Positions 12,454-33,468 of a DNA stretch of 44,565 bases are shown in pieces. The DNA is taken from positions 2,806 to 47,370 of the forward strand of contig JAOABG010000004.1 in the NCBI GenBank assembly GCA_026418475.1. The letters are read 5' to 3'. The notes beneath the pieces were generated by a model. It did no database searches and was not told the DNA's origin. It saw only the letters and a program-made list of their open reading frames with translations. How positions within the stretch are numbered: the first letter of the stretch is position 1; every line of letters starts with the position of its first letter. The position numbers and the translations under genes are program-made. Source of the stretch: a bacterium. Its GTDB lineage: Bacteria; DRYD01.

Positions 12454-13023
12454 TCAATTTATTTTTATGAAATATTTTTTTATTTGATTAATGTTTTGAT
12501 TTTTATATATCGCTTTTAAGATTACTTTTTTATTTTTATAGTTTTTAGGGATTCTGATGGTTATTGAATTAGGCGAAGTATAGAATATACTTATATTTTT
12601 TTCGTTTGTAGTTATTTCTACAAATGGAGAAAAATTAAAATACCATATTATATAAAATGTGGTATATTCATCAAATTCAAATTTATCTACCTTCATTATT
12701 TCAGGAAATGTGTAGTTATATTTCTCTATTATTTGTTCATTAAAACTTACTACTTTGTTATCTTTTATTTTGAAATAAAGATGCTTATTTTTTATTTCTG
12801 ATGATAATATTTTGTTATATACTTCTTCGGTTACGTAGAATCTTTGAGAAGAGGATAGCAAGATAAATGGGGGGGCGTATGTAGTCCCCCTACCTATGTA
12901 CTTTATACTCCCCTCTGCTGTTAATATATTATTTGAAAAAGATATTGATAATATAAGAAATAGAGTAACCAATGTTATATTAAGTGTTTTCCATATTGTT
13001 TTCTGTATTTTGAATTCTCTCAT
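12454..13023 (-). CDS. Secreted/envelope protein of unknown function
   Basis: Signal-peptide-like N-terminus after MREFKIQK. GAGGAG Shine-Dalgarno sits about 8 nt before the ATG at 13023, so the ORF-track start at 13038 is probably too far upstream. Confidence 0.7.
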   Translation of the reverse strand: MREFKIQKTIWKTLNITLVTLFLILSISFSNNILTAEGSIKYIGRGTTYAPPFILLSSSQRFYVTEEVYNKILSSEIKNKHLYFKIKDNKVVSFNEQIIEKYNYTFPEIMKVDKFEFDEYTTFYIIWYFNFSPFVEITTNEKNISIFYTSPNSITIRIPKNYKNKKVILKAIYKNQNINQIKKYFIKIN

Positions 13024-13459
13024 AATTGAACTCCTCAAGTAGTTCCATTATATCTATTATTATGGAAATAATTAAATTAATGATGGTTATTAATTTGTTT
13101 CTTTGTTGATTTAATATTTCTATTTGTATTTTTAATAGTCTTTCTTTTTGGGGTATGAAGGTTTTTTGTATTTCCTGTATATTTGTTATTGTTGTTTGTA
13201 TACTCTGTATAAATTCCAAAAAGAGAGTATCTGTATTAATAAGCTTCTCTTCAATTTGTTTAGAGTATATGATTGAATTTTTAAATTTTGTATACAAAAT
13301 GTTGTATACGTTTTGTTTGATTTGTATGTATTGTTTTGAAAATTTTTCTATTAGGATTTCTATTTGTTTGGGGTTTACTTTTTCTTCTATCTCTTCTTTT
13401 GATATCATTTTTTCAATATCTTGGGAAGTGGATAGGAGATCACGTATTAAATTTTGCAT
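12980..13459 (-). CDS. Small coiled-coil protein of unknown function
   Basis: Heptad-rich ORF; ATG at 13459 lies 5 nt after the CCA end of the tRNA. Confidence 0.65.
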   Translation of the reverse strand: MQNLIRDLLSTSQDIEKMISKEEIEEKVNPKQIEILIEKFSKQYIQIKQNVYNILYTKFKNSIIYSKQIEEKLINTDTLFLEFIQSIQTTITNIQEIQKTFIPQKERLLKIQIEILNQQRNKLITIINLIISIIIDIMELLEEFNYERIQNTENNMENT

Positions 13460-13464
13460 CAATT

Positions 13465-13541
13465 TGGTGGGCCTCTCTGGACTCGAACCAGAGACCTTAC
13501 CCTTATCAGGGGTACGCTCTAACCACCTGAGCTAGAGGCCC
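13465..13541 (-). tRNA. tRNA-Ile(GAT), CCA encoded
   Basis: Minus strand: GGGCCTC TA GCTC AGGTGGTTA GAGC G TACCC CTGATAA GGGTA AGGTC TCTGG TTCGAGT CCAGA GAGGCCC A CCA. Complete cloverleaf, anticodon GAT, 77 nt. Confidence 0.98.
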
Positions 13542-13580
13542 TTCTCTATTCTTTTTTGATATTAAATGGATTTTCCCTCT

Positions 13581-28606: not shown

Positions 28607-29299
28607 CTATTCTTTGTTCTGTCTCGATTCGGATAACTTGGTTAAAGCTGCTGCAACCACACCACCTACTATTCCTCCTATTGCTGCTCCTGCCAATCCT
28701 CCGATCAAAATGTGTTCGAGATGACTAATTCCAGTTTCAAACTTTACATGGGTTTTTTGGTAAGTATCTATTATTTTGTAGTCTATTTTGGGAGAAAATC
28801 TTACCCAGTATCCGTTTACTTCTTGGTAGCATTTTTGAATATCTCCATCTCTAATACAATACTCATCTACATCTTCCCATATTGTTTGACTGTATCCTTT
28901 AAATATGGGTTCTTTAACTTCTTGTGTTGTATAGTTTACAATTGGTTTACCATGTCCTTGGAAAGTTTGAGTATATTCTTTATAGATGACTTTTCCATAT
29001 TCATCTTTTACAGGGATTTTTTCATAAACACTTTCTGTGGGGGTGTTATTCACTGATTCCCATGGCCAAGTGGGAACATACTGATTTTTGGGAATTTTAC
29101 CTATTTCATGTGTTTCGTAAATAGGTTCTTTAACTTTAACTTCTACTGTTTCAACTGGTAATGATTTTACTTTTTTATTGGCTTGTATCCCTCCAAGTAT
29201 TGAACCAACAACTGCTCCACCTGCTGCTCCTATACCTACACCTTTAACAATGTTTTCCCCTGATTTTGTTGAGGAATACAAATTATTGTTCAGTTTCAT
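28607..29299 (-). CDS. Double glycine-zipper protein of unknown function
   Basis: N-terminal 'GVGIGAAGGAVVGSILGG' and C-terminal 'LIGGLAGAAIGGIVGGVVAAA' flank a linker repeating 'VKEPI(Y/F)'. Confidence 0.75.
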   Translation of the reverse strand: MKLNNNLYSSTKSGENIVKGVGIGAAGGAVVGSILGGIQANKKVKSLPVETVEVKVKEPIYETHEIGKIPKNQYVPTWPWESVNNTPTESVYEKIPVKDEYGKVIYKEYTQTFQGHGKPIVNYTTQEVKEPIFKGYSQTIWEDVDEYCIRDGDIQKCYQEVNGYWVRFSPKIDYKIIDTYQKTHVKFETGISHLEHILIGGLAGAAIGGIVGGVVAAALTKLSESRQNKE

Positions 29300-31587: not shown

Positions 31588-31656
31588 TTTTCAAACGATA
31601 TATTTGAGACGTAATAGCAAAACTAATAAAAATTATTCTTTTAAGGGGTGAAAAAA

Positions 31657-33468
31657 ATGAATATAAATGCAGTGAATGGATCTGTTAAACATAATTTAAT
31701 TAGTAAAAGTAATATTTCAAAATTTGAAGAAAAAGATGAAAAAGATTGGACCGTATTTTTATATCTTAATACAGAAGATGATAATTCTGTAAAAAATTTG
31801 ATGCTTAATCTCAAAATGCTTGAAATGGTAGGTTCTGATAAGAACTTGAATATTGTTGTCCAAGCTTATATACCTTCTTGGGGAAAGGTAAAGAGATTCT
31901 ATATAGAACAGAAAGAAAAATGGGAAACTTCAAAGCTCATAAAAATGGTACTATCTTCTCTTATTCCCTGGAAAAAATTTGAATTGGAGAACAAACCAGT
32001 TGAAGAATTGGAAAAGGTTAATTTAAATGATCCCAAAGTTTTTGAGGATTCATTAAAATGGGTGATAAAGAACTATCCTGCCAAAAAGCTAATGGTTATG
32101 ACTATTGGAGATAATGAGGGTTTGAAAACCTCTTCTGCGCAGGTAAGTATAAAGGATTTTGCAAAAAGTATTGAAAATGTTTATGCTGAAACAAAAGTTA
32201 AACCCGATGTTTTGGTTATGGATGGATCTTCTGTTGCTTCAATAGAAACAGTTACAGAATTAAAAGATAAAGCAAAGTATTTGGTTGGTACAAGTGGATT
32301 TGCTCCAAAACTTAATGTTCCATTTGCTATGTTTCTTAATGAAATGAAGAATCTTATAGATGGTGGCCCTAATGATGTGGAAAGTGTTATAAAATCATAC
32401 TTTCTTATTCATAATCTTTCAGGCGCAAGTTCTCAGACTACTGTTGTAGATTTATCAGATGAATCTATAGATGGAGCTGTTAAAGCTTGGGATCAAATGT
32501 CCAAGGAATTGCTAAAATTGGATGACCAAACTCTTGTAGATAAAATTCTACCTCTAATGTACAAGGCAGAGGATTTGGCCAATACTCCTGAAAGAAAACC
32601 TTATCTTGAAATGAGAGATGCAATTAGTTTTGCTAAGCTTGTATCTCAATCTGGTGATTTGCCACAAAGTTTGAGAAAAGCTGCTTATGATGCTGTCCAG
32701 AAGGTTACCAATATAGTTCATATGGAGAATAATTTGTATAAAAAGGAATTAGATCCAGATTCTAATGGAATTTCAGTTTTCATGCCAGATAATTTAGGTA
32801 ATTTCAAATCTGAAAAGTTTCCTATTCCTAAAGGATTCAAAAAGGATTATGGCTATTCGGAATTGTTATTTTCTAAATTGACCAATTGGGATGAATTTTT
32901 GAATAGAATTAGTCAAAAAGGAGTAATGGAGAAATTCTTGTTAAAGTTAGGTTTTTCCCAAAGTGTTATAGATAACATTTATGCTATAAGGAATCATTCT
33001 GTTAAGCTTTATAAAGATAAGATTTCGGGGTGGGCAAATTTAATGGCTTGGTTCAATGCTGTTAATAGGATTAGCAGTGATAAGCCGGTTGGGTTGTGGT
33101 TTATTCCACCATTTATTACACTGCCTTTGGGTATAATAAGTTCAGTTGAACAGATTTATAGTAATATTAAAGCTGCTAAGTACGTTTATGATAATATACC
33201 TCAAAAGGATATACTTGGAGTAATAGGCTTGGATGCTGCTCAGGGGTTAGCGAAGTTGATTGCCAATGTTTCTTATTTGGTCCCATTTTTAGCACCTGCA
33301 GCTCCTGCAGCAGGTCTGTTTACTTTCTTGTTGCCATGGATAAAGGATTTCTACAACGTATATTTGAATTACAAGAACAATAAAGAAAAATTTGTCTATA
33401 ATGATGTAACATTTGCAGATACTGCAAAAATGTATTTCCTTAATAAGTTTGCTAATATGTTAACTTGA
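31657..33468 (+). CDS. Clostripain (C11)-like protein, predicted catalytically inactive, with hydrophobic C-terminus
   Basis: 'KDWTVFLYLNTEDDNSVKNLMLNLKMLEMVGSDKNLNIVVQAY', 'NYPAKKLMVMTIGDNEGL', 'DVLVMDGSSVASIETVTELKDKAKYLVGTS'. Start ATG 31657 after AAGGGG. Confidence 0.75.
   Translation: MNINAVNGSVKHNLISKSNISKFEEKDEKDWTVFLYLNTEDDNSVKNLMLNLKMLEMVGSDKNLNIVVQAYIPSWGKVKRFYIEQKEKWETSKLIKMVLSSLIPWKKFELENKPVEELEKVNLNDPKVFEDSLKWVIKNYPAKKLMVMTIGDNEGLKTSSAQVSIKDFAKSIENVYAETKVKPDVLVMDGSSVASIETVTELKDKAKYLVGTSGFAPKLNVPFAMFLNEMKNLIDGGPNDVESVIKSYFLIHNLSGASSQTTVVDLSDESIDGAVKAWDQMSKELLKLDDQTLVDKILPLMYKAEDLANTPERKPYLEMRDAISFAKLVSQSGDLPQSLRKAAYDAVQKVTNIVHMENNLYKKELDPDSNGISVFMPDNLGNFKSEKFPIPKGFKKDYGYSELLFSKLTNWDEFLNRISQKGVMEKFLLKLGFSQSVIDNIYAIRNHSVKLYKDKISGWANLMAWFNAVNRISSDKPVGLWFIPPFITLPLGIISSVEQIYSNIKAAKYVYDNIPQKDILGVIGLDAAQGLAKLIANVSYLVPFLAPAAPAAGLFTFLLPWIKDFYNVYLNYKNNKEKFVYNDVTFADTAKMYFLNKFANMLT

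What the first reader, a model, noticed from the sequence alone, without database searches (positions are those of the whole stretch)
31657..33468. C11 clostripain-like pseudoprotease with membrane-prone C-terminal extension
The N-terminal half matches clostripain layout. The catalytic His of the 'DHG' segment is replaced in 'MTIGDNEGLK', and the catalytic Cys in 'D-A-C-L-M-A-S-x-E' is Ser in 'MDGSSVASIE'. The C-terminus has strongly hydrophobic Pro/Ala/Gly segments ('GLWFIPPFITLPLGIISS', 'YLVPFLAPAAPAAGLFTFLLPW'). This could be a binding or decoy protein, or a membrane-active effector.
Basis: partly seen in the sequence, partly recalled or inferred. Interest (0 to 1): 0.6.

Follow-up and report, generated by a model that had tools for sequence, protein, structure and literature searches.

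The report
Dead clostripain-like protein with membrane tail
A hot-spring bacterium keeps, next to two working clostripain-type protein-cutting enzymes, a third copy that has lost both catalytic residues and gained a greasy, probably membrane-inserting tail; it is conserved across its bacterial family, so it probably does a non-cutting job such as holding or regulating the working enzymes at the membrane.

Summary
The ORF (ATG 31657, stop 33468, 603 aa) is a divergent member of the clostripain (C11) superfamily that cannot be a cysteine peptidase. The catalytic His position is Asp152, the catalytic Cys position is Ser191, and there is no cysteine anywhere in the protein or in its four orthologues. 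All five (55-93% identity) share the loss and the same ~185-residue C-terminal extension. They come from four species of one genus (Candidatus Calescibacterium, phylum Calescibacteriota) and one sister genus. Purifying selection is as strong as on the intact paralogues (dN/dS about 0.075), so it is a functional pseudoenzyme, not a decaying gene. The same genome encodes two intact C11 peptidases. The extension holds two proline-rich hydrophobic segments (478-497, 527-561), is predicted helical with low confidence, and matches nothing known. Independent dead C11 copies occur elsewhere, two of them in a related genome. Best reading: a membrane-anchored, non-catalytic partner or regulator of the active C11 peptidases. 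The dead-enzyme part is well supported; membrane anchoring is likely; the partner role is inferred. Known parallels are pseudo-orthocaspases and trypanosome MCA4; I found no described C11 pseudopeptidase in the papers searched.

The parts
31643..31650 (+). ribosome-binding-site-like AAGGGGTG, 6 bases between it and the ATG
   Evidence: read from the sequence
31657..33468 (+). complete gene, 603 aa, dead C11 homologue with C-terminal extension
31657..31740 (+). residues 1-28: polar, fast-evolving N-terminal tail, no signal peptide seen by eye
   Evidence: N-tail dN/dS about 0.23 against about 0.07 for the rest in the closest pair; composition
31741..32910 (+). residues 29-418: caspase/clostripain-like core
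   Evidence: Pfam C11 at 120-416; Foldseek best hits are C11 structures 6nag, 9cip, 6n9j, 6mzo, E 7e-9 to 9e-7
31921..31974 (+). residues 89-106: 18-residue insertion (WETSKLIKMVLSSLIPWK), absent from intact paralogues
   Evidence: alignment A2
32110..32112 (+). Asp152 at the catalytic His position (invariant in five orthologues)
32227..32229 (+). Ser191 at the catalytic Cys position (invariant in five orthologues)
32911..33465 (+). residues 419-603: lineage-specific C-terminal extension, predicted helical (low confidence)
   Evidence: found once per genome in five Calescibacteriaceae genomes only; no PDB match
33088..33147 (+). residues 478-497: hydrophobic, proline-containing segment 1
   Evidence: KD mean 1.60
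33235..33339 (+). residues 527-561: hydrophobic, proline-rich segment 2
   Evidence: KD mean up to 1.83

Best explanation
It is a functional pseudopeptidase: a C11 (clostripain-type, clan CD) paralogue that lost the His-Cys dyad and all cysteines, and was kept because its fold still does a non-catalytic job. Shown: dyad loss, conservation, purifying selection, coexistence with two intact C11 peptidases, a lineage-specific extension. Likely: the C-terminal hydrophobic segments insert into a membrane as a hairpin, with positive residues on both outer sides, so that the C11 core and the C-terminus lie on the same (cytoplasmic) side. Inferred: the dead core binds the active C11 peptidases or their basic (Arg/Lys) substrates or pro-segments, and so anchors, inhibits or helps activate them at the membrane.
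For: Pfam and Foldseek place the core in C11. The dyad is lost and no Cys is left in 5/5 orthologues. dN/dS is 0.075 for the whole gene (core 0.073, extension 0.056) against 0.08-0.11 for intact paralogues between the same two species. Intact paralogues L001 and L002 keep DHG...DACLMA in the same genome, and intact copies occur in the other Calescibacteriota genomes searched. The extension is present once per genome and conserved, with two hydrophobic segments. The gene stands in different neighbourhoods in G002 and G004, so its conservation is not a by-product of an operon. Precedents in clan CD: pseudo-orthocaspases with Tyr/Ser in place of His/Cys (PMC6426788), Synechocystis SyOC (PMC7889975), T. 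brucei MCA4 (cited in PMC4850289).
Against: Nothing shows contact with the active peptidases: they lie on other contigs and no operon links them. The S1 Asp is not conserved (D/E/G at 189), and the loop between the two catalytic positions is 7 residues shorter than in paralogues, so substrate binding as in C11 is doubtful. The prolines make plain transmembrane helices uncertain, and the predicted model of the extension is poor (mean pLDDT 62). G005, in the same genus as G004, has no detected copy (it is 87% complete).
Confidence: 0.5

Rival explanations
1. A membrane-active effector: the C11 fold is only a scaffold, and the C-terminal domain, perhaps released when an active C11 paralogue cuts the linker at the invariant Lys421 (ISQK), permeabilises a membrane of the cell itself or of a neighbour.
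For: Strongly hydrophobic, proline-rich conserved extension; low-confidence linker at 407-433 with invariant I418-S419-Q420-K421; C11 enzymes cut after Arg/Lys (PMC4850288); active paralogues in the same genome.
Against: No immunity-like partner or operon; no defence family match beyond a weak, probably chance DrmC hit (E 8e-4); no structural similarity to pore formers; a single slowly evolving copy per genome is unlike a toxin in an arms race.
Confidence: 0.15
2. A leaderless protein exported through the flagellar-type export apparatus, which in this phylum appears to consist of export gate and rod without hook or filament; the hydrophobic hairpin would act outside, like a translocator.
For: FlhA and rod proteins present but no flagellin, FliD or FlgM found in G000-G003 and G006; Calescibacteriota C11 proteins lack signal peptides and carry polar N-tails, whereas some C11s of other phyla have signal peptides (L012, L021).
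Against: The N-tail resemblance is a pattern chosen after the fact; no export signal can be tested here; the C11 genes are not beside the rod genes; translocator likeness rests only on having two hydrophobic segments.
Confidence: 0.12
3. A different enzyme: the invariant Asp152/Ser191 pair, perhaps with His252, forms a new (serine-type or other) active site on the clan CD fold.
For: D152, G190, S191 and H252 are invariant across 55% identity.
Against: No serine-type clan CD enzyme is known to me; His252 lies on a helix outside the active-site strands in the model; Cys->Ser is also a common change in the known dead pseudo-orthocaspases (PMC6426788).
Confidence: 0.05
4. A decaying pseudogene or an assembly artefact.
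For: Dead catalytic residues; the window comes from a fragmented genome.
Against: Intact 600-618 aa frames in five separate genome assemblies and dN/dS about 0.075. A true C11 relic with stops exists for contrast (G002:C10).
Confidence: 0.01

Closest known systems
Peptidase family C11 (clostripain, PmC11, iotapain)
   Same: Core fold and order of strands; Pfam PF03415 match; C11 crystal structures are the best fold matches.
   Different: No His-Cys dyad, no cysteine at all, S1 Asp not conserved, shortened loop between the catalytic positions, insertions and a ~185-residue hydrophobic C-terminal domain.
Bacterial pseudo-orthocaspases (family C14), e.g. Synechocystis SyOC
   Same: Catalytically dead caspase-fold proteins of bacteria in which Cys is commonly Ser (PMC6426788, PMC7889975).
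   Different: Family C14, mostly in phototrophs; no comparable hydrophobic hairpin extension described in what I read.
Trypanosoma brucei metacaspase 4 (MCA4)
   Same: A clan CD pseudopeptidase with a biological role beside active metacaspases (cited in PMC4850289).
   Different: Eukaryotic, C14. Its membrane association and its processing by an active metacaspase are recalled, not tested here.
Other dead C11 copies found here (L017, L068 in G006; L073, L083, L079 in other phyla)
   Same: Both dyad residues replaced in a C11 frame.
   Different: Separate losses (L017 and L068 group with intact copies of their own genome); L017 and L068 lack the C-terminal extension.

Membership tests
Peptidase family C11 (clostripain) | Sequence match to PF03415 over the curated cut-off | tested here: met
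   43.5 bits against 25.8; four of five orthologues pass, the most divergent (L034) does not
Peptidase family C11 (clostripain) | Caspase-like fold with C11 order of elements | tested here: met
   Foldseek hits to C11 structures, E 7e-9 to 9e-7, prob 1.00, though mean model pLDDT is only 58
Peptidase family C11 (clostripain) | Catalytic His-Gly ... Ala-Cys dyad | tested here: not met
   D152 and S191; no Cys in any orthologue
Peptidase family C11 (clostripain) | S1-pocket Asp before Ala-Cys (Asp177 of PmC11) | tested here: not met
   Position 189 is D, D, E, D, G in the five orthologues
Peptidase family C11 (clostripain) | Autoprocessing site in the loop after the catalytic His (Lys147 of PmC11) | tested here: inconclusive
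   The stretch between the two catalytic positions is 39 residues against 46 in paralogue L001; no equivalent site could be assigned
Peptidase family C11 (clostripain) | Proteolytic activity after Arg/Lys | not testable with these tools
   needs an assay
Pseudoenzyme (pseudopeptidase) of clan CD | Loss of catalytic residues with conservation under purifying selection | tested here: met
Pseudo-orthocaspase (C14) | p20 domain of family C14 | tested here: not met
   Pfam scan gives C11 and no C14 match
Integral membrane protein | Hydrophobic segments at or above KD 1.6 over 19 residues | tested here: met
   478-496 (1.60) and 541-559 (1.83), borderline to clear, several prolines; insertion itself not tested

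The most novel reading that the evidence does not exclude
In Calescibacteriota the flagellar apparatus has been reduced to export gate plus rod without hook or filament, and serves as a secretion system for leaderless proteins with polar N-tails: active C11 peptidases, hairpin-type membrane proteins, and this dead C11 fused to a membrane-inserting domain that acts as their anchor or translocator outside the cell.
Probability: 0.08. Interest if true: 0.8.

Novelty: new variant of a known kind. Interest (0 to 1): 0.45.

Why it matters
Dead clan CD peptidases are known regulators in the caspase family (C14), but I found no description of a conserved dead member of family C11 in the papers searched. 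This one comes with its active paralogues in small genomes and with a domain of no known family, so it gives a clean case for asking how bacteria reuse a protease fold without catalysis. Separate dead C11 copies in related and unrelated genomes suggest that C11 pseudopeptidases are a recurring and overlooked class.

Tried and rejected
Pseudogene or artefact: rejected by five intact orthologues and low dN/dS. Mobile or viral origin: no match in viral contigs, phages or plasmids. Operon partner: flanking genes (uvrB, zinc-ribbon protein, radical SAM protein) are ordinary, and two of the four other orthologues sit in different neighbourhoods. Homology of the extension to a family of small hairpin proteins (L119): same general layout, but profile comparison gives 0.1-0.3% probability, and 4 of 60 hydropathy-preserving shuffles score as high, so not claimed. 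Fold of the extension: model too poor and no PDB hit. DrmC, DUF7599 and VHP matches: weak, single, helical stretches, taken as chance. Phylogenetic origin: unresolved because of a stem of 2.1 changes per site; a common origin with the other Calescibacteriota C11 is not rejected (AU p 0.73).

Full report
Observation. The ORF starts at ATG 31657 behind an AAGGGGTG box and ends at 33468, giving 603 aa. Pfam assigns Peptidase_C11 to residues 120-416 at 43.5 bits against a cut-off of 25.8. The window lies in a 1.57 Mb, 189-contig genome (79% complete) that encodes two further C11 proteins, both intact.

Catalytic residues. Aligned to the intact paralogues and in an HMM-based survey, the DHG His corresponds to Asp152 and the DAC Cys to Ser191. 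In the predicted model, strands end at residues 151 and 189, just ahead of these positions. That agrees with the published placement of His133 and Cys179 at the ends of strands 5 and 6 of PmC11 (PMC4850288). None of the five orthologues has a single cysteine, and only one His (252) is invariant. The loss is therefore complete and not an alignment artefact. The stretch between the two positions is 7 residues shorter than in L001, and the S1 Asp position varies (D/E/G).

Who has it. Orthologues with the same extension occur in three other species of the genus and one species of a sister genus. Named records identify the group as Candidatus Calescibacterium, phylum Calescibacteriota. A search of 386 genomes with a profile of the extension found only these five, plus weak partial hits (best E 6e-4) taken as chance. 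It is absent from viral contigs, phages and plasmids.

Selection. Between the two closest species dN/dS is 0.033/0.445 = 0.075 for the whole gene, 0.073 for the core and 0.056 for the extension. The intact paralogues give 0.082 and 0.105. Only the first 28 residues are loose (0.23). The protein is maintained.

Origin. The five dead proteins form one clade (100/100) on a stem of 2.1 changes per site. Its place is unresolved, but a common origin with the other Calescibacteriota C11 is not rejected (AU p 0.73). In the related genome G006 two other C11 copies have lost the dyad, and each groups with an intact copy of that genome (89/82 and 100/99). Three further dead copies occur in other phyla. 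Dyad loss in C11 has thus happened repeatedly.

Extension. Residues 419-603 hold two hydrophobic segments (KD 1.60 and 1.83) with several invariant prolines. Residues before the first and after the second segment are net positive and the loop between is neutral, which by the positive-inside rule favours a hairpin with both ends in the cytoplasm (inference). AlphaFold models it as helices at low confidence, with no PDB match.

Mechanism. The best-supported reading is a membrane-anchored pseudopeptidase that binds the active C11 peptidases or their substrates. Dyad loss, conservation and coexistence with active paralogues are shown. Anchoring is likely from the sequence. Partner binding is inferred from precedent: pseudo-orthocaspases (PMC6426788), SyOC, whose deletion raises oxidative-stress tolerance (PMC7889975), and MCA4 (cited in PMC4850289). 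Rivals are a membrane-permeabilising effector, an exported translocator-like protein, and a new type of active site.

Side finding. In Calescibacteriota genomes G000-G003 and G006 the flagellar export gate FlhA and rod-type proteins are present, but flagellin, FliD and FlgM were not found. The same searches found these families in three or four control genomes. A 2016 paper inferred flagellar motility for this group from basal-body genes (PMC4791363). G004 and G005 were not covered by these searches, and the genomes are incomplete. Whether this apparatus secretes the leaderless C11 proteins is open.

Literature. Searches for clostripain with pseudoprotease, and for inactive C11 homologues, returned no paper on a C11 pseudopeptidase; the library is open-access only.

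Noticed in passing
G000-G003 and G006 (loci L088-L092, L102-L113, L114-L121): Export gate (FlhA, FlhB) and rod-type proteins (FlgB, FlgC, FliE and FlgF/FlgG-like by eye) are present, but no flagellin, FliD or FlgM is detected, and no hook-sized Flg_bbr_C protein was seen: a flagellar basal body apparently without hook or filament, at odds with a published inference of motility.
   Followed up: partly
L099:44-1426 and L099:1451-2116 (G006:C43): A second, independently dead C11 copy is followed 24 bp later by a leaderless ORF with a long hydrophobic hairpin region and no Pfam match: dead C11 and membrane-prone protein as separate neighbours rather than fused.
   Followed up: partly
L119:12447-12914 and 12956-13546; relatives L132-L148: A Calescibacteriaceae-specific family of small leaderless proteins with Gly/Ala-rich hydrophobic segments, one to three copies per genome, in G002 next to rod genes; no Pfam match.
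   Followed up: partly
window 28607-29299 (-): 230-aa leaderless protein with glycine-zipper segments at both ends (weak YMGG match, below cut-off), conserved at the same place in the sister species L031.
   Followed up: no
L073, L083, L079 (other phyla): Further C11-frame proteins lacking both dyad residues: C11 pseudopeptidases may be a general, undescribed class.
   Followed up: partly
L013 and L056: C11 proteins with His kept but 'WDCSLMQ' instead of 'DACLM': the Cys is shifted by one residue; unclear whether active.
   Followed up: no
G002:C10:114290-114430 (L071): Remnant of a C11 gene with several stops, a true pseudogene in the same genus.
   Followed up: no
N-termini of Calescibacteriota C11 and hairpin proteins: Recurrent polar starts such as MNIN.VN or MEINKLN; 3 of about 290 other proteins match the same (post hoc) pattern.
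   Followed up: partly
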